Positions 3,558-33,657 of a DNA stretch of 33,657 nt are shown here, in pieces. The translations under genes and the position numbers were made by a program. Each line of letters starts with the position of its first letter. The first letter of the stretch is position 1. The notes beneath the pieces are model-generated. The model had not been told where the DNA came from. It saw only the letters and a list, made by a program, of their open reading frames with translations, and made no database searches. This stretch comes from an uncultured Clostridia bacterium (GTDB lineage: Bacteria > Bacillota > Clostridia > Christensenellales > Aristaeellaceae), in contig CAMVHE010000030.1 of the NCBI GenBank assembly GCA_947167215.1, positions 1 to 33,657 on the forward strand. The letters run 5' to 3'.

Positions 3558-5642
3558 TTACTGAAGAGAATTGTAATAGTCAAGAATGTCTTCCCAAGCC
3601 CATTCCTTGATCTCGAGGTAAGGAATGCCATTCCAGGTATCAGCAACGGTGCTTGCAGCTTCCTCAGCAGAGGAGAAGCCTTCGAAGGTCAGACCATTGG
3701 CAATGCAGTCAACCAGAACGTTGACCTGATCATCACCCTTGGCGCTGCTGAACTTGGTCTTCAGCTCGGTGTAGGTATTGATCGTGTCATTGTCGATCTT
3801 CGTGGTGGGCAGCACGGTGGGAACAGAGGTGTACCAGCCGTTCTCGGTCACAGCCAGTTCGGGATGCTTGATGGTGCCAAGACCGATAGCCGTGGAGATA
3901 TGTCCTGCACCCTCGCGGCCGGCCTCAGAAGTGCACTGATATTCGAACGCCTGAGACTTTGCGAAGGAAAGGGTGGATCCCAGATACATACGAGCATAGT
4001 TGGTATAGTTGCCGCTGGCCTTCTCCCAGAGTTCTGCACGGGTAGCGTCAGCGATTTCAGGCATTTCCTGACCGTTGAACATGAAGGTTGCATAGCTTCC
4101 GTCCGCATTCTTCTTGATGAACGCGTCAGGACCATAGGACATGAGGATCATGCCTTCGGGGCTGTAAGCATAGTCAATCAGCTTGAGAGCTGCATTCAGC
4201 TTGTCGGGATTGTTGGCAACAGCAGGAGCAGAGATTCCCCAACCATCGGTCTTGACAGAACGCCAGGACTCGGTAAAGCGCATGTAAACGCCATCCTCGT
4301 TGGTGCCGTCATACCACCGGGCAACAGGAACCATAACTGCCATGTACTTTTCGCCTTCCTGCAGCTTGGTCTCATTGTAGATGGTCTGGGTCTGGTTGTA
4401 GTCATAGTGCATGAAACCGAGATCATTCTCAAGATACTTTGCAGTGTTCTCAGCTTCTTTGTTTACGAAAGCTTCGGAGATGAGGCCTTCGGTAACCAGC
4501 GTATGCATCCGAGCGAGAGCTTCATAGGTGCCGGCTTCCTGACGGGCATCATGCAGCAGGTTGTCGGTGCCTACATAGAGGTAATCCTGACGGGACTCAA
4601 GGCCACGAACGCCGAAGAGGTGTCCGGCAAAGCGGAACATATCAACGCGGCGCTGATTGTTGTCATCCTCACGGGTGAAGAGGCCCTGAACCTTGTCAGT
4701 TCCGTTCAGCGTGTAAGCATTGGCAACTACGCAGCGGAGCAGAGCAACCAGCTCATCTGCATCCCAAGCAGCATTCTGTCCAACGAACAGATTGGAGCGC
4801 TGGGTGCCATAGTAGCCATTGTAAGCTTCGTCGATGTACTTACGCAGCATGTTGACAGCAGCAACGCCGTCCACATCGCCAGCAGCAAGAGCATCATTCA
4901 TCGTTGCGATGATGTTGCCTGCAGCATCATAATTCTTGGAAATGGTTTCCACTGCAGTGCCGTCGAGCGTGACAACGTCAATATCGACAGAACCGGCGGT
5001 AGGCATATAAGGAGTATAAGCGGCAGGCTTGAGGGTTCCGCACTTCTCAGCGGTGAATTCGCCTTCGCCGTCCAGCAGCTTTGCTACCCAGTCTACACGC
5101 ATGAGGGGCATTCTCTCGATATCGTTGACACCGTCAAAATACGGAGAGAAGTAGATAGCGCCGGTGCTTACGTTACCGGTAATGGAAAGACGGACGATGG
5201 GGTTTGCTTCAAGGTATGCCTTGAAGTTCGGCATCTCGTCAAGATACTCGGCGATATTGACAATCGCTCCGCTCTCACCATACTCAGACAGCTTTGCAGC
5301 GGTACCGCTCAGCATGTCAACCTCGGTGAGCTGCTCTTTCCAGTACTCGAATTCGTTGGCTGCGCTGTTGCCCTGATACTTGTTTTCAAAGACAACCTTC
5401 AGCACATTCTGCACTTCAACCCAGGTGGGTTTGAGGTCGCCGGAATGATAGGTATTGCCATCTGCCAGGGTGATTCCTTCACCGGCAGTCTGGTCATCAA
5501 AGAAAAGACCAGTCTTCGCGCTGTTATAGCCTGTTGCCATGCGCAGTACGGTGCCGTCTGCATACTCAAGATCAGCAAAAGCTGCAGAGCAGACGAGAAC
5601 CATCATGATGGCAAGCAGCCAAGACAAAAGCTTCTTGTTCAT
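3558..5642 (-). CDS. Large extracellular solute-binding protein of the sugar ABC importer
   Basis: This is likely the substrate-capturing protein of the importer, working outside the membrane and delivering ligand to the permeases at 5703-7658. The 694-residue product starts with a Sec signal peptide (about residues 1-23, basic MNKK, hydrophobic core, AFA before Asp). The Cys in the core has Val before it, so it is not a proper lipobox and the protein looks secreted rather than lipid-anchored. Many acidic and aromatic residues (Trp, Tyr) fit a carbohydrate binder. LplA-type partners of LplB/LplC permeases usually have about 500-560 residues, so this one is clearly longer. The ATG at 5642 follows AAGGAGGAG; a longer frame from 5669 lacks a ribosome site. 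The sugar bound cannot be told. Confidence 0.9.
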   Translation of the reverse strand: MNKKLLSWLLAIMMVLVCSAAFADLEYADGTVLRMATGYNSAKTGLFFDDQTAGEGITLADGNTYHSGDLKPTWVEVQNVLKVVFENKYQGNSAANEFEYWKEQLTEVDMLSGTAAKLSEYGESGAIVNIAEYLDEMPNFKAYLEANPIVRLSITGNVSTGAIYFSPYFDGVNDIERMPLMRVDWVAKLLDGEGEFTAEKCGTLKPAAYTPYMPTAGSVDIDVVTLDGTAVETISKNYDAAGNIIATMNDALAAGDVDGVAAVNMLRKYIDEAYNGYYGTQRSNLFVGQNAAWDADELVALLRCVVANAYTLNGTDKVQGLFTREDDNNQRRVDMFRFAGHLFGVRGLESRQDYLYVGTDNLLHDARQEAGTYEALARMHTLVTEGLISEAFVNKEAENTAKYLENDLGFMHYDYNQTQTIYNETKLQEGEKYMAVMVPVARWYDGTNEDGVYMRFTESWRSVKTDGWGISAPAVANNPDKLNAALKLIDYAYSPEGMILMSYGPDAFIKKNADGSYATFMFNGQEMPEIADATRAELWEKASGNYTNYARMYLGSTLSFAKSQAFEYQCTSEAGREGAGHISTAIGLGTIKHPELAVTENGWYTSVPTVLPTTKIDNDTINTYTELKTKFSSAKGDDQVNVLVDCIANGLTFEGFSSAEEAASTVADTWNGIPYLEIKEWAWEDILDYYNSLQ

Positions 5643-5702
5643 AATACTCCTCCTTGTGTAAAAACACATTCTCTATGGTGAAGCGGAAAACCGCATCAAC
5701 CC

Positions 5703-18126: not shown

Positions 18127-18147
18127 GTGGCACGTCATCAAGTTAAA

Positions 18148-18163
18148 CCACAATATATTGTAT
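18148..18163. promoter_or_regulatory. NrdR box in the nrdD leader
   Basis: The 16 bases match the NrdR consensus at 14 positions, with a perfect 12-bp palindrome ACAATATATTGT at 18150-18161. NrdR represses ribonucleotide reductase genes when dATP is plentiful and usually binds two boxes. A weak second match (9 of 16) lies at 18115-18130 on the -10 element, 17 bases upstream. Repression of nrdDG is therefore likely; nrdR itself is not in the window. Confidence 0.75.
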
Positions 18164-18186
18164 TCAAAGGGGAGTCGGGGACACAA

Positions 18187-20361
18187 ATGAAAATCATCAA
18201 GAGAAACGGTTCTGAAGAGGCATTTACCAGAGACAAGATCACGCATGCCATTGAGAAGGCCAACGTCACCGTCGAGGAAAAATACCGGATGACGGACGTT
18301 CAGATCCATCGCATCGTGGATGCCGTCATCATGTCCTGTGAAGAGCTGAACCGCGTTCCCACTGTTGAAGAGATTCAGGATTTCGTGGAAGACCAGATCA
18401 TGGCACACGGAGCCTTTGAGGTCGCCAAGAACTATATTACCTACCGCTATACACGTTCTCTTGTCCGCAAGAGCAATACCACCGATGACCGCATTCTTTC
18501 CCTGATTGAATGCAACAACGAGGAAGCCAAGCAGGAGAACGCCAACAAGAATCCCATTGTCAATTCTACCCAGCGTGACTATATTGCCGGAGAGGTTTCA
18601 AGAGACCTCACCGACCGCATCCTCCTGCCGCCCGACATCGTTAAAGCCCATGAGGAAGGCATCATCCATTTCCACGACAGTGACTATTATGCGCAGCACA
18701 TGCACAACTGCGATCTGGTCAACCTGGAGGACATGCTGCAGAATGGCACCGTCATCACCGGAACGCTCATCGAGCGTCCCCACAGCTTCTCCACGGCCTG
18801 CAATATCGCAACCCAGATCATTGCGCAGGTCGCTTCCAACCAGTACGGCGGCCAGTCCATTTCGCTGTCCCATCTGGCTCCTTTTGTCCAGGTCTCCCGG
18901 GAAAAGATCCGCAGGAGCATCCTGGAAGAGCTGGAAACCATTCATGCGCCCATTTCCGAGGAGGTGCTCTCCCGCCTGACCGAGCGCAGGCTCCGGGAAG
19001 AAATCCGCCGCGGCATCCAGACCATCCAGTACCAGGTCGTAACCCTCCTGACCACCAACGGGCAGGCTCCCTTTGTCACGGTCTTCATGTACCTGGGAGA
19101 AGCCAAAAATGAACAGGAGCGGGAAGACCTTGCCCTCATCATCGAGGAGACACTGGAGCAGCGCTATCAGGGCGTAAAGAACGAGAAAGGCGTCTGGGTC
19201 ACCCCTGCCTTCCCCAAGCTCATTTATGTGCTGGAAGAAGACAACATTCACGAGAACAGCAAATACTGGTACCTGACCAAGCTTGCCGCAAAATGCACGG
19301 CACGCCGCATGGTTCCGGATTACATTTCCGAAAAGAAAATGCTGGAGCTCAAGGTCGACCGTAACGGCGAAGGCCACTGCTATCCCTGCATGGGCTGCCG
19401 CAGCTTCCTAACCCCGTACGTGGACGAAAACGGCAAGCCCAAATACTACGGCCGCTTCAACCAGGGAGTTGTGACCATCAACCTGGTGGACGTTGCCCTT
19501 TCTTCCGGCGGAAATACAGAGCGTTTCTGGCAGATCTTTGACGAGCGCCTGGAGCTCTGTCACAGGGCCCTCATGTGCCGCCATAACCGCCTGAAGGGCA
19601 CCCTCAGCGATGCGGCCCCCATCCTCTGGCAGTACGGCGCCTGTGCCCGGCTGCAGAAGGGTGAGCCGATTGACAAGCTGCTCTACGGCGGATATTCCAC
19701 CATCTCCCTCGGCTATGCGGGGCTTTACGAATGTGTCAAATACATGACCGGCAAGAGCCATACGGATCCTTCCGCCACCCCCTTTGCCCTCGAAGTCATG
19801 GAATACATGAATGCTGCCTGCCGCAAATGGAAAGCCGAGCATAACATCGACTTCAGCCTCTACGGCACGCCGCTGGAATCCACCACCTACAAATTCGCCA
19901 AATGCCTGCAGCATCGCTTCGGCATCATCCCCGGCGTCACCGACAAGAGCTATATCACCAACAGCTATCATGTCCATGTCACCGAGAACATCAATGCTTT
20001 TGACAAGCTCTCCTTTGAGGCCCAGTTCCAGAAGCTCTCTCCCGGCGGAGCCATCTCCTATGTGGAAGTGCCGGACATGCAGAACAACCTGGACGCGGTT
20101 CTTGAAGTGATGAAGTTCATCTATGACAATATCATCTATGCGGAACTGAACACCAAATCCGATTATTGCCAGGTATGCGGCTACAACGGGGAAATCTCCA
20201 TTGTGGAAGAGCATAACAAGCTCATCTGGAAATGCCCGCAGTGCGGCAATACCGACCAGAACAAAATGAACGTTGCCCGCAGGACCTGCGGCTACATCGG
20301 AACGCAGTTCTGGAATCAGGGACGGACACAGGAGATCAAGGAGCGCGTGCTCCATCTGTGA
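18187..20361 (+). CDS. nrdD: Anaerobic ribonucleoside-triphosphate reductase NrdD
   Basis: This class III enzyme reduces ribonucleoside triphosphates to deoxyribonucleotides using a glycyl radical and works only without oxygen. The 724-residue protein has an ATP-cone regulatory domain (about 1-95, IIKRNGSEEAFTRDKI), the catalytic barrel with NCDLVNLEDML and PHSFSTACNIATQI, a Cys-rich GHCYPCMGCRSF stretch, a zinc site near the C-terminus (CQVCG then CPQCG), and the radical loop RTCGYIG, where Gly702 is the expected radical site. I chose the ATG at 18187 after AAGGGGAG; the frame runs back to a GTG at 18127, which overlaps the promoter. The activase NrdG follows after 7 bases. ATP-cone and NrdR box indicate both allosteric and transcriptional control. 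Confidence 0.97.
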   Translation: MKIIKRNGSEEAFTRDKITHAIEKANVTVEEKYRMTDVQIHRIVDAVIMSCEELNRVPTVEEIQDFVEDQIMAHGAFEVAKNYITYRYTRSLVRKSNTTDDRILSLIECNNEEAKQENANKNPIVNSTQRDYIAGEVSRDLTDRILLPPDIVKAHEEGIIHFHDSDYYAQHMHNCDLVNLEDMLQNGTVITGTLIERPHSFSTACNIATQIIAQVASNQYGGQSISLSHLAPFVQVSREKIRRSILEELETIHAPISEEVLSRLTERRLREEIRRGIQTIQYQVVTLLTTNGQAPFVTVFMYLGEAKNEQEREDLALIIEETLEQRYQGVKNEKGVWVTPAFPKLIYVLEEDNIHENSKYWYLTKLAAKCTARRMVPDYISEKKMLELKVDRNGEGHCYPCMGCRSFLTPYVDENGKPKYYGRFNQGVVTINLVDVALSSGGNTERFWQIFDERLELCHRALMCRHNRLKGTLSDAAPILWQYGACARLQKGEPIDKLLYGGYSTISLGYAGLYECVKYMTGKSHTDPSATPFALEVMEYMNAACRKWKAEHNIDFSLYGTPLESTTYKFAKCLQHRFGIIPGVTDKSYITNSYHVHVTENINAFDKLSFEAQFQKLSPGGAISYVEVPDMQNNLDAVLEVMKFIYDNIIYAELNTKSDYCQVCGYNGEISIVEEHNKLIWKCPQCGNTDQNKMNVARRTCGYIGTQFWNQGRTQEIKERVLHL

Positions 20362-22612: not shown

Positions 22613-24361
22613 ATGGGAAACTATCGTCATTTCAAACTGGTTGCCTATTTTGTGGCACATGCTGCTGCGACCATTACCCGTGAAGAGCTGGAAAAACAGC
22701 TTGCCTTCATGGAAAAGTATCTCCGCATCGACAAAATCTATCTGGAGCCCTGGCGCGGAGAACTTGCCTCTCACGAGCAGATCGAGATGTGCCGCCAGGT
22801 GCTCGAAGCCCATGGCATCGAGGTCGCCGGCGGCCTTACCACGGTGATTCCCACCCCCGAAGGAGCCGTCCCCAAGGCACGTCTTTTTGACACCTTTTGC
22901 TACAATGACCCCGCCATGCGGAAGAAGCTGAAGGAAGTCAGCACTTTCATCGGTTCCCATTTTGACGAATTCATCATTGATGATTTCTTCTTTACGGACT
23001 GCGCCTGCGAAGACTGCATCCGGGAGAGGGATGCCTATAACCGGCGCAACGGCATTACCGACGGAAGCTGGCAGTCCTATCGTCTGGATCTTCTCCGTCG
23101 CATCAGCCAGGAAGATATCATCGGGCCGGCAAAAACCGCCAACCCCCGCTGCAGGATTACCATCAAGTATCCCAACTGGGCCGAAAGCTACCAGGAAACC
23201 GGATACAATCCCCGTGAACAGCGTAAGCTTTTCGATCGCGTCTATACCGGAACCGAAACCCGGGATCCTGTAACCACCGACCAGCACCTGCCCCGTTATC
23301 TCTCCTATTCCCTGATGACGTACTTTGAGTCCATGTGGCCGGGGCATAATGGCGGAGGATGGTTTGACACCTTCGATGTGCATATTACGGAACATTACCT
23401 TGAGCAGGCCTACCTGACCGCTTTTGCTAAACCGCAGGAGATCATGCTCTTCTGCTTCCAGTCCATCTACGACAACATGCTGACGGCTGCCCTCGGATAT
23501 CAGCTGGACAAACTGGACGATGTCCTCGACCACGCAGGAAATCCCATCGGCATTTCCTGTTATCTCCCGGACGACAGTCAGGGAGAGGATAACCTGCAGG
23601 ATTTCCTCGGAATGGTAGGATTTCCGGTGCTCCTGACCCCCTACTTCCCGGAAAACGCACAGCAGATCCTGCTGACCCGCGCCGCGGCTTCCGACCCCGA
23701 CATCCTCACGAAGCTGGACACCTACCTCCGCAGCCATACAGGTACCGTCCTGGTAACTACCGGCTTCATTGATGCGGTGAAAGGATTTGAGCGTTTTTCC
23801 TCCATCCGCCTGCGCCATCGCAGCATTACCGCCCGGCAGTACCGTGTGGAAGAATGCCTGCCCCAGGACTGGCCCGCCTGTTCCTTCCCCGAGGGAGCCG
23901 CACCCGTCACTTTCCCGGTGGCCGAATTCCGGAACAATGCAACCTGGGCCATCGTGAAAGCCGTCCATCAGGAAGAAAGCTATGGCATACTTCTCCGTGA
24001 TTCCTATGGGCAGGGAACCATTTACACGCTGGCCGTACCGGATTCCTTCCCGGACCTTTACCGGATTCCCTCCCTGGCACTGTCCCGGATCCGTCAGGCC
24101 ATTCCCGTCAATGGCATCTGGCTGGAAGGTGCCCCCCGCATCAGCCTCTTCCCCTATGACAATGATACCTTCATCCTCTATCCGTATGTGATGGACGGCA
24201 CCCAGAGGGAAATTGTCCGGATCCATATCCGTAACGCTTCCCGCCTGACCCTCCCCCTGTCCGGCAAGGAAATTCTTCCCCTGTATAAGCGGGACGAAGA
24301 GTCGGTCTTTGAAGTTCCTGCAATCCCCGGTCAGTATGTACTCTACCGGATAGATCGCTGA
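22613..24361 (+). CDS. Putative TIM-barrel, glycoside hydrolase-like protein
   Basis: I do not recognise a named family. The 582-residue protein has no signal peptide or membrane helix, so it is probably cytoplasmic. The first two thirds look like an alpha/beta barrel: KIYLEPWRGE, IEVAGGLTTVIPT, and FDEFIIDDFFFTDCACEDC (about 117-135), in which Asp123-Asp124 after a beta strand and a nearby Cys-x-Cys-x-x-Cys group resemble catalytic strands of several glycoside hydrolase-like families; TIKYPNW and FESMWPGH follow. The last part (about 490-582) is beta-rich, like an accessory beta domain. The ATG at 22613 follows AAGGAAGG. It is the likely target of the divergent TetR protein. Substrate and activity are unknown; a non-enzymatic or other barrel enzyme is possible. 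Confidence 0.75.
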   Translation: MGNYRHFKLVAYFVAHAAATITREELEKQLAFMEKYLRIDKIYLEPWRGELASHEQIEMCRQVLEAHGIEVAGGLTTVIPTPEGAVPKARLFDTFCYNDPAMRKKLKEVSTFIGSHFDEFIIDDFFFTDCACEDCIRERDAYNRRNGITDGSWQSYRLDLLRRISQEDIIGPAKTANPRCRITIKYPNWAESYQETGYNPREQRKLFDRVYTGTETRDPVTTDQHLPRYLSYSLMTYFESMWPGHNGGGWFDTFDVHITEHYLEQAYLTAFAKPQEIMLFCFQSIYDNMLTAALGYQLDKLDDVLDHAGNPIGISCYLPDDSQGEDNLQDFLGMVGFPVLLTPYFPENAQQILLTRAAASDPDILTKLDTYLRSHTGTVLVTTGFIDAVKGFERFSSIRLRHRSITARQYRVEECLPQDWPACSFPEGAAPVTFPVAEFRNNATWAIVKAVHQEESYGILLRDSYGQGTIYTLAVPDSFPDLYRIPSLALSRIRQAIPVNGIWLEGAPRISLFPYDNDTFILYPYVMDGTQREIVRIHIRNASRLTLPLSGKEILPLYKRDEESVFEVPAIPGQYVLYRIDR

Positions 24362-30603: not shown

Positions 30604-30638
30604 CGGTCGGATTCTCTGGCTCACAGAGAATCCGGCCG
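30604..30638. terminator. Bidirectional terminator between convergent operons
   Basis: A 15-bp stem (30604-30618 with 30624-30638, one G-U pair) with a 5-base loop. On plus it is followed by TTTCTATTT, on minus by TTTATTTTTTTTT, so it can end both the glycosyltransferase operon and the yhfC operon. Confidence 0.85.
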
Positions 30639-30651
30639 TTTCTATTTGGAT

Positions 30652-31437
30652 TTACGCTTCCATTTCTTCTTTTCGGTAACAGGTTCTGGCGGTCAGGACA
30701 ATGATTCCCGCAAATACCATCACCAGGAGCTCTACCAGATAGATGGAGACGCCCATCCTCATGGCATATACAGTGATACCGTCCAGGCCGGCATGAAGCA
30801 GCATCGCCAGGAACAGGAGGGAAACCCGTTTCTTCTTTACGGAAAGGAAAACCAGAACGGAAAACCCGAGGTGAGAAGCAATGGCCATCAGCCGCTCAAG
30901 GCCTCCCACCAGGAACTCCGGCGGCTGCGTGGCAATCAGTGTATCGATCTGCCTCTGAACCTCCGCCAGTTCTCCCCCGGCCAGCGTTCCTGTCAGGGCA
31001 GCGATGTTTCCGCTGTTGATCAGGCCGGACAGGATCAGATTGCCGATGACGGTCACACCGACAACGAGAATGGATTCAATCCCTCCATGTCCGGCACCAT
31101 ACATCAGTGCGTTGTTTACATCCCCCAGGTCTTTTCGCAGCACGGTCCGAAATGCCAGGTAACGGCCGGTTTCTTCAAAAAGTGCTGCCATCAGGCCGCC
31201 GTAAACCGCATACATCCACGGACTTGCCTGAATCGTGGCGCCAGCTGCAGAAAAAAGCACCAGGCGGTGCACCATGGCTTCCAGCACCAGTGCAAAGAGG
31301 AACATGACGGCCATTCCTACGAAGAAGGGCAGTCTGCGCGCGCCGCGCCTGCGAAACAGAATATAGAGGAAGATGGGTGTACCTACAGCCAGCAGAAGTT
31401 CAAGGACCATCATCCCAATCGCGTAAGTGGATACCAT
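30652..31437 (-). CDS. YhfC family intramembrane metalloprotease-like protein
   Basis: The 261-residue protein is a likely intramembrane protease of the YhfC family. About seven membrane helices are visible. The expected motif is present: Glu88-Glu89-x-x-Arg92 in FEETGRYLAF, His117 in GAGHGGIES, and a late His near 220 in AMLLHAGLDG, matching the EExxR/H pattern of Abi/CPBP-like intramembrane enzymes. The substrate is unknown. The ATG at 31437 follows AAAGGAG with a spacing of about 10. It is the third gene of the SPFH - ribbon-helix-helix - yhfC operon; SPFH proteins elsewhere often regulate membrane proteases (HflKC with FtsH, NfeD-linked stomatins), so a working pair is plausible here. Confidence 0.88.
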   Translation of the reverse strand: MVSTYAIGMMVLELLLAVGTPIFLYILFRRRGARRLPFFVGMAVMFLFALVLEAMVHRLVLFSAAGATIQASPWMYAVYGGLMAALFEETGRYLAFRTVLRKDLGDVNNALMYGAGHGGIESILVVGVTVIGNLILSGLINSGNIAALTGTLAGGELAEVQRQIDTLIATQPPEFLVGGLERLMAIASHLGFSVLVFLSVKKKRVSLLFLAMLLHAGLDGITVYAMRMGVSIYLVELLVMVFAGIIVLTARTCYRKEEMEA

Positions 31438-31453
31438 AATCCGTTTTCTCCTT

Positions 31454-31654
31454 TCAGGAAATATCCAGTTCTATCGGTTTATCCAGCTCTTCTGAAACAT
31501 ATTTCCCGTTTTTCTTCCGTTGCTTCACGCATTCCGTCAGCAAATACTCAATCTGTCCGTTCACGGATCTGAAATCATCCTCTGCCCACGCAGCGATGGC
31601 ATCGTACAGTTTTGCACTCAGACGAAGGGGTATCTGTTTCTTGCTGTCTGCCAT
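31454..31654 (-). CDS. Arc-like ribbon-helix-helix DNA-binding protein
   Basis: The 66-residue protein starts with MADSKKQIPLRLSAKLYDAI, a beta strand then helix of the ribbon-helix-helix fold, followed by AEDDFRSVNGQIEYLLTECV, the second helix that contains the dimer core; the tail (RKKNGKYVSEELDKP) is charged. It probably binds DNA as a dimer through the strand pair. The ATG at 31654 follows GGGAGG. It sits between the SPFH gene (56 bases upstream) and yhfC (16 bases downstream). The promoter of this operon has two tandem palindromes spaced one helical turn apart, which is how ribbon-helix-helix dimers commonly bind, so autorepression is likely. No partner toxin gene is visible, so I do not call it an antitoxin. 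Confidence 0.88.
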   Translation of the reverse strand: MADSKKQIPLRLSAKLYDAIAAWAEDDFRSVNGQIEYLLTECVKQRKKNGKYVSEELDKPIELDIS

Positions 31655-31710
31655 CTCTCCACCTCCCGTCTGAGCCCTTTCCGATGCCCTGAAATCTGTT
31701 CGAAACCATT

Positions 31711-32712
31711 TTAATACAGACTTCCGGAATTGACTACCGGCTGTGCGTCATGATTGCCGCAGAGAACCACCAGAAGGTTGGAAACCATCGCAGCCTTCCG
31801 CTCCTCATCCAGCTCCACCACCTGCTTCTCGCCGAGACGCTCCAATGCCATTTCCACCATACCGACAGCGCCGTCCACGATGAGCTTTCTGGCATCGACC
31901 ACGGCGGATGCCTGCTGACGCTGCAGCATGACCGCTGCAATTTCGGGCGCATAGGCCAGATAGGTAATGCGTACATCCAGGATCTCCAGACCTGCTTCTC
32001 TTACCTTCTCCTGGATTTCCTCCCGGATGCGGCCGACGACAATCTCGCTGGAACCGCGCAGGGAACCGTCATCCGCCTGTCCGTCTCCGGTAGTGTCCAC
32101 ATTGGGGGAGACATCATAAGGATAAACCTTCACAACATTGCGCACTGCACTGTCGCACTGGAGGGAAAGATATTCCTTGAAATTATCCACACTGAATACC
32201 GCTTTTGCCGTATCCTGCACCCTCCACATGACCGCGATTCCAATCTCCACCGGATTTCCCAGCACGTCATTGACTTTCTGAATGCCGTTGCTGAGGGTCA
32301 TGACTTTCAGGGAGATTCTCTTATTGACCAGCCCCGTGCCGTTTTTCATTGCCTGGGCAAGTTCGCTGCCGGCATGATTTTCCACATCGCGGCTCTGTCC
32401 GAGTCTGGTCTTGGCCGCAGGGTTCACGGATACGCAGAAAGGATTTACGGCAAAGAAGCCGGGTCCTTTCAGGGTTCCTTCATAGTTGCCGAACAGGGTG
32501 AGAACCAGCGCCTCCTGGGGCTGCAGAATCCGGAGTCCCAGCAGCGGAATCCAGGCAATGCAGGAAAACAGGATCAGCAGAAGGACCACTCCCCCCAGCT
32601 CGTATACGGAAAAGGCTAAGATTCCGATAATCAGCAGGATGTACAGCAGGATCTCGCCTACCAGGAGCAGCAGTCCGCTTTTCGGATTGTTCGAAATGAC
32701 TTTTTCCTTCAT
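31711..32712 (-). CDS. SPFH/band 7 (stomatin-like) membrane protein
   Basis: The 333-residue protein has two hydrophobic segments near the N-terminus (about residues 14-36 and 38-58), then an SPFH domain (LQPQEALVLTLFGNYEGTLKGPGFFAVNPF, the IGIAVMWRVQDTAKAVFSV core) and a long charged, helical, coiled-coil-like part (about 190-290) with EEIQEKVREAGLEILDVRITYLAYAPEI. SPFH proteins form large rings in the membrane and regulate proteases or membrane domains. The ATG at 32712 follows GAGAGAGG; a GTG at 32721 is possible. First gene of an operon with a ribbon-helix-helix regulator and YhfC. A linker rich in Asp and Gly (DTTGDGQADDGSLRG, about residues 206-220) interrupts the domain, a calcium-loop-like sequence of unknown meaning. 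Confidence 0.92.
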   Translation of the reverse strand: MKEKVISNNPKSGLLLLVGEILLYILLIIGILAFSVYELGGVVLLLILFSCIAWIPLLGLRILQPQEALVLTLFGNYEGTLKGPGFFAVNPFCVSVNPAAKTRLGQSRDVENHAGSELAQAMKNGTGLVNKRISLKVMTLSNGIQKVNDVLGNPVEIGIAVMWRVQDTAKAVFSVDNFKEYLSLQCDSAVRNVVKVYPYDVSPNVDTTGDGQADDGSLRGSSEIVVGRIREEIQEKVREAGLEILDVRITYLAYAPEIAAVMLQRQQASAVVDARKLIVDGAVGMVEMALERLGEKQVVELDEERKAAMVSNLLVVLCGNHDAQPVVNSGSLY

Positions 32713-32742
32713 GGATAACACCTCTCTCGTTTTGATGGCATT

Positions 32743-32771
32743 ATGATATCAAATTGATATCATTCTGTCAA
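32743..32771 (-). promoter_or_regulatory. Promoter of the SPFH operon
   Basis: On the minus strand a perfect TTGACA (32766-32771), 17 bases and TATCAT (32743-32748, one base from consensus). The spacer is filled by the operator palindromes. Confidence 0.88.
32744..32762. promoter_or_regulatory. Tandem palindromic operator within the SPFH promoter
   Basis: Two copies of the self-complementary TGATATCA (32744-32751 and 32755-32762) lie 11 bases apart, and together form a perfect 19-bp palindrome centred on 32753. The site fills the spacer and overlaps the -10, so a bound protein would block RNA polymerase. The Arc-like protein of the operon is the best candidate. Confidence 0.75.
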
Positions 32772-32805
32772 CAGGTATTTTTTTCTTTTCGCAACAGTGC
32801 AAACA

Positions 32806-32891: not shown

Positions 32892-33657
32892 ATGAGTTTT
32901 CGCTGCACTCCCGCTCCCAAGGACCCTGTACGCACGCTCGCATACGAGCCGTGGAAAATGGCTGTCCATGCTTTTCAGGTTTCTCCCCGTACCTGGTATG
33001 TTTCCGGCCAGTCCTGGGTTGGCGCCTATCTGATTGATACCGGAGATGGCTGTATCCTGCTTGACACGGCGATCCCGGAAAGCCTGTATCTTCTGGTCCA
33101 GGGCATTTATGAGTCCGGTCATACCCCGGAAGACATTAAAATGATCCTTCTTTCCCATGCCCATTTTGACCACATCGGCGGTGCTGCAGCCATGCAGAAA
33201 CTGACCGGTGCTGCCACCTATCTCTCCCGGGAAGATGCACTGTTCCTTGAGAAATGTCCGGAAGAGACCATCTCCCTGGATAAGGATTCCCATGTGCAGA
33301 TTCCTGTCATTGACCGCTATTATGATGACAATACTCCCATCTGTCTGGGAGATATTTCTGTCCGCACCCTGCTGACGCCCGGTCATACCATTGGATGCAC
33401 CAGCTTCTTCTGGCAGGAGACCAATCCGGAAACCGGTGCCGTTTACACCGTCGCCATGCATGGCGGCGTGGGTGCCAACACCATGAATGACAAATACTAT
33501 TCCACCTCGCATTATCTGACGCCAGACCTGCGGGACCGCTTTTTCGAAGATGCCCCGAAAGTAGCATCCATCCCCGTGGACATCGCCCTTCCCAGCCATC
33601 CCAATCAGATTGAGATTCTCGATAAAGCCGGTCAGTACACCCATGCCAGCCAGCCTT
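32892..33657 (+). CDS. MBL-fold metallo-hydrolase, class B3-like, cut by the window end
   Basis: The reading frame is open from the ATG at 32892 (AAGGAGG upstream) to the window edge, giving 255 codons without a stop, so the gene is partial at its 3' end. It shows the metallo-beta-lactamase fold: SGQSWVGAYLIDTGDGCILLDTAIPES, the zinc motif HAHFDHIGG, PGHTIGCTSF with the third His, and a late PSHPNQ. This set resembles class B3 lactamases and their relatives, but no signal peptide is seen, so it is probably a cytoplasmic hydrolase of unknown substrate rather than a resistance enzyme. It is divergent from the SPFH operon and has its own promoter. Confidence 0.88.
   Translation, partial: MSFRCTPAPKDPVRTLAYEPWKMAVHAFQVSPRTWYVSGQSWVGAYLIDTGDGCILLDTAIPESLYLLVQGIYESGHTPEDIKMILLSHAHFDHIGGAAAMQKLTGAATYLSREDALFLEKCPEETISLDKDSHVQIPVIDRYYDDNTPICLGDISVRTLLTPGHTIGCTSFFWQETNPETGAVYTVAMHGGVGANTMNDKYYSTSHYLTPDLRDRFFEDAPKVASIPVDIALPSHPNQIEILDKAGQYTHASQP

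What the first reader, a model, noticed from the sequence alone, without database searches (positions are those of the whole stretch)
30652..32771. SPFH, ribbon-helix-helix and YhfC form a self-regulated membrane module
One operon joins a ring-forming SPFH protein, an Arc-like repressor and an intramembrane protease-like YhfC. The promoter spacer carries two self-complementary TGATATCA sites exactly 11 bp apart, suited to two ribbon-helix-helix dimers on the same face of DNA. The module could sense membrane stress: the protease controlled by the SPFH ring, and the small repressor switching the operon. A sensor that releases the repressor is not obvious. I know of no described system of this composition.
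Basis: partly seen in the sequence, partly recalled or inferred. Interest (0 to 1): 0.75.

Follow-up and report, generated by a model that had tools for sequence, protein, structure and literature searches.

The report
Self-regulated membrane-scaffold operon of gut Clostridia
In many gut Clostridia a membrane-scaffold gene sits beside a tiny repressor-like gene behind a near-identical paired DNA switch, and in some relatives the same switch stands before exporter pumps, which points to a small membrane-stress circuit in which the neighbouring protease is only an occasional passenger.

Summary
In detail: SPFH (31711-32712), a 66-aa Arc-like ribbon-helix-helix protein (RHH, 31454-31654) and YhfC (30652-31437) form one minus-strand operon, and TGATATCA-AAT-TGATATCA (32744-32762) lies in its promoter. 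SPFH-RHH is a conserved pair: RHH follows SPFH in 80 of 80 related loci. The tandem site precedes SPFH in 78 of these 80, at 11-bp spacing. In 243 genomes of the class, 12 of 13 with an exact site carry the RHH, against 43 of 243 overall; the 13th has a divergent RHH right behind it. YhfC is not part of the conserved unit: adjacent in 1 of 80 loci. Unforeseen: of 25 further sites in 89 RHH genomes, 4 precede second SPFH genes and 14 precede ABC-exporter genes. Best reading: the RHH represses its own operon and, in some genomes, exporters, as a compact membrane-stress regulon.

The parts
31711..32712 (-). SPFH/Band_7 protein, 333 aa; first gene of the operon
   Evidence: Pfam Band_7 9.8e-19; 540 relatives found, best 80 kept
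31454..31654 (-). Arc-like ribbon-helix-helix protein, 66 aa; proposed autorepressor
   Evidence: RHH_5 7.1e-5, below cut-off; Arc first in PDB profile search; follows SPFH in 80 of 80 loci
30652..31437 (-). YhfC-family membrane protein, 261 aa; accessory third gene here
   Evidence: Pfam YhfC 2.5e-46; motifs EETGR at residue 88 and GAGHGGIE at 114; adjacent in 1 of 80 relatives
32744..32762 (.). Operator: TGATATCA-AAT-TGATATCA, two self-complementary boxes with starts 11 bp apart
   Evidence: conserved upstream of SPFH in 78 of 80 loci, spacing 11 bp in 78 of 81 regions
32743..32771 (-). Promoter TTGACA-17-TATCAT of the operon, overlapped by the operator
   Evidence: 11 of 12 matches
32733..32740 (.). 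Weak extra box TGATGGCA, 11 bp from the left box; significance uncertain
   Evidence: pair 32733-32751, 2 mismatches
32766..32773 (.). Weak extra box TGTCAACA, 11 bp from the right box, coincides with the -35; significance uncertain
   Evidence: pair 32755-32773, 3 mismatches
30604..30638 (.). Strong inverted repeat between the convergent DUF218 gene and YhfC; terminator-like on the plus strand in the scan
   Evidence: terminators in the shuffled region are as frequent (2 found, mean 2.3), so only the 15-pair stem is notable

Best explanation
The 66-aa Arc-like protein is a dedicated autorepressor. Two dimers bind the tandem TGATATCA boxes 11 bp apart, side by side on one face of the DNA, and cover the -10 of the SPFH promoter. 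The core unit is operator-SPFH-RHH, found across Clostridia. In a minority of genomes the same repressor also controls ABC exporter operons, and occasionally a YbjQ-type protein, a DUF4003 protein or a toastrack (DUF4097) lipoprotein. The gene content fits a small membrane-stress regulon in which the SPFH protein scaffolds or protects the membrane and the exporter removes the offending compound. YhfC in this window is an accessory gene of the operon. Shown by sequence: the unit, the operator, its spacing and overlap with the -10, co-occurrence with the RHH, the further sites. Inferred: binding and repression. Speculative: the inducing signal, and relief of repression by SPFH holding the RHH at the membrane.
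For: RHH after SPFH in 80 of 80 loci, within 60 bp in 67. Site (14 of 16 or better) before SPFH in 78 of 80 plus the window, shuffles never above 13; box spacing 11 bp in 78 of 81 regions, other spacings in at most 2. A -35 hexamer places the -10 in the left or the right box in 64 of 79. Class sample: 12 of 13 genomes with an exact site are among the 43 of 243 with the RHH, Fisher p 2.6e-9 (window genome included); in G162 the site stands before a divergent stand-alone RHH. Of 25 further sites in 89 RHH genomes 4 precede second SPFH genes and 14 ABC genes; the last two sites, overlooked at first and fetched only for the final recount, both precede the type A exporter already seen. Gene order agrees: ABC genes between SPFH and RHH in L151, type A ATPase directly after RHH in L050, YbjQ inside or after the pair in L007, L025, L046, L033, L056.
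Against: No binding, expression or stress data. The 80 loci are the closest of 540 relatives. In the class sample 5 of 14 RHH loci read lack a site within 2 mismatches: L154 starts at a contig end, L161 and L173 have truncated SPFH, in L172 neither SPFH nor RHH was recovered as an ORF, but L174 has a full-looking SPFH-RHH pair and no site within 3 mismatches. Exporter sites occur in only 14 of 89 genomes; this genome has one site only. Four of 25 further sites are unexplained and three sites lie in genomes where no RHH was found, in front of unrelated genes. The RHH is below every Pfam cut-off.
Confidence: 0.73

Rival explanations
1. One reading: SPFH ring, YhfC protease and RHH work together, with the protease regulated by the ring or feeding the switch.
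For: Tight co-transcription in the window (16-bp gap); YhfC directly after RHH in L034 and a Rce1/CAAX-type protease between SPFH and RHH in L063.
Against: YhfC adjacent in 1 of 80 loci; YhfC homologue in 9 of 44 genomes searched, next to RHH in one; none of the 25 further sites precedes YhfC.
Confidence: 0.1
2. Another DNA-binding protein recognises the tandem site and the RHH next to SPFH acts elsewhere.
For: Three family genomes have a near-site and no RHH match (G001, G004, G019); RHH below family cut-offs.
Against: 12 of 13 exact-site genomes in the class carry the RHH and the 13th has a divergent RHH behind the site; box geometry suits two RHH dimers.
Confidence: 0.07
3. The RHH is an antitoxin-like regulator and the pair is a toxin-antitoxin or defence system.
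For: ParD_like profile hit 1.7e-4; small autoregulated RHH proteins are typical antitoxins (PMC2812701, passages).
Against: No PADLOC hit for any of the three proteins; the partner is a conserved 333-aa SPFH protein and comes first; the site also precedes exporters; an RHH stands alone in G162.
Confidence: 0.03
4. The RHH autorepresses SPFH-RHH only for steady-state dosage; there is no stress regulon and the exporter sites are local recruitments without a common function.
For: In 64 or more of the 89 genomes only the SPFH site was found within 1 mismatch; the window genome has one site.
Against: 14 of 21 non-SPFH further sites precede ABC genes, in two orthologous families that recur (type A 52-82%, type B 68-74% identity); the ABC genes also enter the operon itself in L151 and L050.
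Confidence: 0.2

Closest known systems
Arc repressor of phage P22 (ribbon-helix-helix)
   Same: Best PDB profile matches are Arc, with the strand and the R-S-V-N turn aligned; two palindromic boxes 11 bp apart suit two dimers as on the Arc operator (operator geometry of Arc recalled, not from a call).
   Different: Weak match (E 0.023-0.64); chromosomal, paired with SPFH; the position of Arc N11 is P9 here (contacts Q9, N11, R13 recalled).
RelB of E. coli relBE
   Same: Autoregulating RHH; [quoted passage not shown]
   Different: Half-sites are 12 bp; the partner is a toxin that acts as co-repressor.
B. subtilis pspA-ydjGHI and FloA/FloT under sigma-W
   Same: SPFH proteins under membrane-stress control (PMC8581546, abstract and passages).
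   Different: Control is by an ECF sigma factor, not by a co-encoded RHH repressor; YdjI is described as lacking a membrane-anchor segment.
PSP/Lia envelope-stress neighbourhoods with band-7, toastrack, ABC and sometimes RHH genes
   Same: PMC11237479 (passages) reports a final RHH gene in some PspA-CesT/Tir operons and an RHH replacing a GntR regulator in an actinobacterial toastrack-ABC operon.
   Different: Those units centre on PspA or toastrack; here the unit is SPFH-RHH with its own operator.
SPFH-NfeD operons (QmcA-YbbJ type)
   Same: Two-gene SPFH operon (PMC8656257, passages).
   Different: The partner is a membrane protein NfeD, not a DNA-binding protein.

Membership tests
Arc/MetJ ribbon-helix-helix regulators | Match to a curated RHH family above cut-off | tested here: not met
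   RHH_5 22.9 bits (cut-off 26), ParD_like 21.9 (23), Arc 13.4 (20.4)
Arc/MetJ ribbon-helix-helix regulators | Sequence pattern of strand, two helices and turn, with Arc as nearest solved structure | tested here: inconclusive
Arc/MetJ ribbon-helix-helix regulators | Palindromic subsites in tandem at fixed spacing in the regulated promoter | tested here: met
   11-bp spacing in 78 of 81 regions, over the -10
Arc/MetJ ribbon-helix-helix regulators | Dimer binding to the operator | not testable with these tools
   needs purified protein
SPFH/Band_7 | Band_7 domain above cut-off | tested here: met
   68.5 bits, cut-off 23.6
SPFH/Band_7 | Ring or cage assembly in the membrane | not testable with these tools
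   no structure prediction available
HflK/HflC | Equivalog score above cut-off | tested here: not met
   hflK 19.2 bits of 159.4, hflC 14 of 134.4
YhfC (PF10086) | Pfam match above cut-off | tested here: met
   158.4 bits, cut-off 24.2
YhfC (PF10086) | Proteolytic activity | not testable with these tools
   only motifs seen
Type II toxin-antitoxin / defence system | Known toxin or defence partner | tested here: not met
   no PADLOC hit at E 1 for the three proteins; partner is SPFH
PSP/Lia envelope-stress systems | PspA or Lia partner in the unit | tested here: inconclusive
   none among the families shown (25 of 31) for 37 downstream genes; one toastrack gene behind a site (L140); not searched genome-wide

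The most novel reading that the evidence does not exclude
A so far undescribed Clostridia-wide membrane-stress regulon with one operator code, in which the SPFH assembly is itself the sensor: on membrane damage it captures the Arc-like repressor (candidate contacts: the C-terminal extension of the RHH and the near-invariant C-terminal tail of SPFH) and so releases SPFH-RHH and the exporters together, much as PspA is known to hold PspF (recalled).
Probability: 0.3. Interest if true: 0.82.

Novelty: new variant of a known kind. Interest (0 to 1): 0.64.

Why it matters
SPFH proteins are found in all domains of life, but how bacteria outside the sigma-W and PspA models control them is poorly known. 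Here a 66-aa protein and a 19-bp site make the regulon readable from sequence in many gut Clostridia (RHH in 43 of 243 genomes of the class), and the exporter targets give the SPFH protein a testable role in tolerance of membrane-active compounds.

Tried and rejected
YhfC as core member: rejected on linkage. Toxin-antitoxin or defence: rejected. HflK/C: rejected by score. Misbinned contig: considered because the window's RHH is 91-92% identical to proteins of other groups (L074; G194) but only 63-65% to two same-genus proteins, and the bin has 7.14% contamination. A 703-aa protein of the same contig has 73-88% matches in 6 of 12 same-genus genomes, though none in G071 and only a weak one in G032, so the contig probably belongs to the genus and the module may be acquired or a distinct subtype. 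Two-mismatch genome scans are noisy: 41 of 42 RHH genomes hit, but the reversed control pattern also hits in 19 of 42, and the list was cut, so they were not used for the regulon count. With 1 mismatch the control had no hit in 80, 30 and 50 genomes. Sites judged chance or unexplained: L082, L130, L145, L146, L147, L088, L093, L094, L155, L156, L157. The base rate for ABC genes (2 of 37 downstream genes) is crude: 37 of 43 co-directional candidates were scanned and six were dropped by hand as likely spurious (L002, L015, L029, L030, L041, L046). The shuffles keep base composition only. On the final recount I found two further sites that I had taken for SPFH sites (G128, G143); they are now included. 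Literature: no paper in the held library joins SPFH with YhfC or SPFH with YbjQ; the single hit for SPFH or stomatin with ribbon-helix-helix is an unrelated citation; SPFH domain with 'Arc family' had no joint hit among 11 papers; the operator letters with 'repressor' gave 83 papers, of which I saw 20 titles, none on this unit; searches gave nothing on it in what was listed. Subscription papers and preprints are not held.

Full report
WHAT IS THERE. On the minus strand of window 30652-32771 lie SPFH (333 aa), a 66-aa ribbon-helix-helix protein (RHH) and YhfC (261 aa), with gaps of 56 and 16 bp. Pfam names SPFH and YhfC above cut-off; the RHH is below every cut-off, and a 26-sequence profile finds Arc first among solved structures, weakly (0.023-0.64). 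The SPFH profile finds stomatin, prohibitin and HflK structures (1.6e-4 to 7.8e-3). Upstream, TGATATCA-AAT-TGATATCA sits at 32744-32762 within TTGACA-17-TATCAT. The pair is unlikely by chance (0.12 expected with up to 3 mismatches, 3 overlapping matches found); the count of single boxes is not remarkable. It is the genome's only site within 1 mismatch.

CONSERVATION OF THE UNIT. In 80 of 80 the RHH lies downstream, in 67 within 60 bp. The RHH is more conserved than SPFH (mean identity to the window 79% against 68%); K5 K6 L10 R11 W23 F28 R29 S30 N32 G33 Q34 I35 E36 are invariant in 26 chosen members. The site (at least 14 of 16) lies upstream of SPFH in 78 of 80 loci plus the window; 20 shuffles per region never exceed 13. 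The two misses, L042 and L049, have another gene ahead of SPFH: in L049 it is DUF4003 and the site (1 mismatch) precedes it; in L042 the contig begins inside a similar gene (only the L049 gene was scanned). Box spacing is 11 bp in 78 of 81 regions, any other spacing in at most 2. A -35 hexamer (4 of 6 or better) lies at one register in 46, at a register 11 bp away in 14 (window included), at both in 4, at neither in 15 of 79; the left or the right box then supplies the TATNAT-like -10. In the first register the variable base of the left box is the fourth base of the -10.

LESS BIASED SAMPLES. In 80 genomes of the window's family, 13 have a site within 1 mismatch, 0 the reversed control; 14 have an RHH match, 11 of them strong (E 2.8e-15 or better), and 9 of those 11, the window's included, have the site at SPFH. 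The other two, G032 and G071 of the same genus, have diverged SPFH-RHH with degenerate sites (2 and 3 mismatches). Of the 4 genomes with a site but no RHH match, G022 has it before an SPFH fragment; G001, G004 and G019 are unexplained. In 243 genomes of the class, 43 have the RHH and 13 an exact site, 12 of them RHH genomes (Fisher p 2.6e-9). In 10 of the 13 the site lies about 1.0-1.2 kb before the RHH; in G359 4.8 kb before it, in one operon; in G168 at a contig end; in G162 directly before a divergent stand-alone RHH. I read 14 class-sample RHH loci: SPFH sequence precedes the RHH in 13 (truncated in L161 and L173); in L172 neither was recovered as an ORF. A site within 2 mismatches is in front in 9 of 14; L154 starts at a contig end; L161, L172, L173 and L174 have none, and L174 looks otherwise intact. 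Several loci carry a third box at the same 11-bp step.

A WIDER REGULON. In 89 genomes with the RHH (9, 30, 50) there are 25 further sites within 1 mismatch. Four precede a second SPFH gene (L129, L131, L133, L149). Fourteen precede ABC transporter genes: L134, L135, L138, L139, L143, L184, L185 (type A, ATPases 52-82% identical, each with a permease of about 520-550 aa next to it); L132, L141, L144, L148 (type B, 71-74%; in L148 after a 171-aa gene); L128, L136 (type C, 45%); L150 (a 752-aa protein with an ABC ATPase domain, 215 bp away, the weakest case). One precedes YbjQ (L127), one lies between a toastrack lipoprotein and a divergent tgt-like gene (L140), one is at a contig end (L142), four are unexplained (L130, L145, L146, L147). 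L184 and L185 came to light only on recounting, after the exporter pattern had been noted, and both fit it; in L184 a type B ATPase follows the type A pair. With 2 ABC genes among 37 downstream genes as a crude base rate, 14 of 21 non-SPFH sites has p about 1.5e-13. Gene order agrees independently: in L151 an ABC ATPase and permease lie between SPFH and RHH; in L050 a type A ATPase follows the RHH; YbjQ lies between SPFH and RHH in L007, L025 and L046 (sequence) and after RHH in L033 and L056. The exporter sites occur in 14 of 89 genomes; most genomes show only the SPFH site, as does this one.

YHFC. Only L034 of 80 has YhfC directly after the RHH; L028 has one 2.1 kb further on. Five loci have under 450 bp after the RHH and could hide one. 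A YhfC homologue was found in 9 of 44 genomes searched, next to RHH only in G106, the genome of L034. L063 has a Rce1/CAAX-type protease in the operon. Downstream genes are otherwise varied. YhfC is thus an accessory here.

MECHANISM. Shown by sequence: a conserved two-gene unit, a conserved operator of fixed geometry over the -10, co-occurrence of RHH and operator, and the same operator before exporters in some genomes. Inferred: two RHH dimers bind the boxes and block RNA polymerase, as for Arc (half-site spacing and contacts Q9, N11, R13 recalled; the profile alignment puts Q7, P9, R11 there) and as for RelB (two dimers on the same DNA face; PMC2812701, passages). Speculative: the inducing signal is membrane damage, and the SPFH protein relieves repression. 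For this speak SPFH induction by membrane stress in B. subtilis (PMC8581546, abstract and passages), the exporter targets, and the toastrack, ABC and RHH links of envelope-stress systems (PMC11237479, passages).

KNOWN OR NEW. The parts are known kinds. PMC11237479 reports RHH genes at the end of some PspA-CesT/Tir operons and in an actinobacterial toastrack-ABC operon (passages). PMC12335938 names a C. autoethanogenum SPFH gene only as a neighbour of another gene (passages). PMC7939560 lists a YhfC-family protein only in a table (passage). Searches for SPFH with YhfC, RHH, YbjQ, 'Arc family' or the operator letters found no description of this unit in what was listed; subscription papers and preprints are not held. 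I rate it a new variant of a known kind.

Noticed in passing
window 32892-33656 (+): Divergent neighbour: a metallo-beta-lactamase-fold protein, nearest to subclass B3 models but below their cut-offs (166.5 bits of 240), so function open. The window ends inside it.
   Followed up: partly
L153:2297-2546 (G162): An exact operator stands before a divergent stand-alone Arc-like RHH with no SPFH beside it; the other side looks like a DtxR-type regulator and an NRAMP transporter (by eye, not scanned).
   Followed up: partly
L167 and L168 (G032, G071): Same-genus genomes carry a diverged SPFH-RHH (49-50% and 64-70%) with degenerate boxes at the TATCAT -10, so the window's version is closer to that of other families.
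   Followed up: partly
L049:2897-5233: A DUF4003 gene of unknown function leads the operon, behind the operator; L042 looks the same.
   Followed up: no
L161:1095-2962 (G318): SPFH reduced to a 72-aa C-terminal fragment next to a conserved RHH and a gene that resembles a transposase (by eye, not scanned).
   Followed up: no
L184:1978-5000 (G128): Operator, type A ABC ATPase, 528-aa permease and a type B ABC ATPase in a row: both recurrent exporter families behind one site.
   Followed up: partly
window 3558-5669 (-) and 22613-24361 (+): Long ORFs of 703 and 582 aa without a Pfam match at 1e-5; the second overlaps a 605-aa ORF on the other strand, so its reality is open. The first has 73-88% matches in 6 of 12 same-genus genomes.
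   Followed up: partly
window 18127-20361 (+): Anaerobic ribonucleoside-triphosphate reductase (NRDD 7.6e-198).
   Followed up: no
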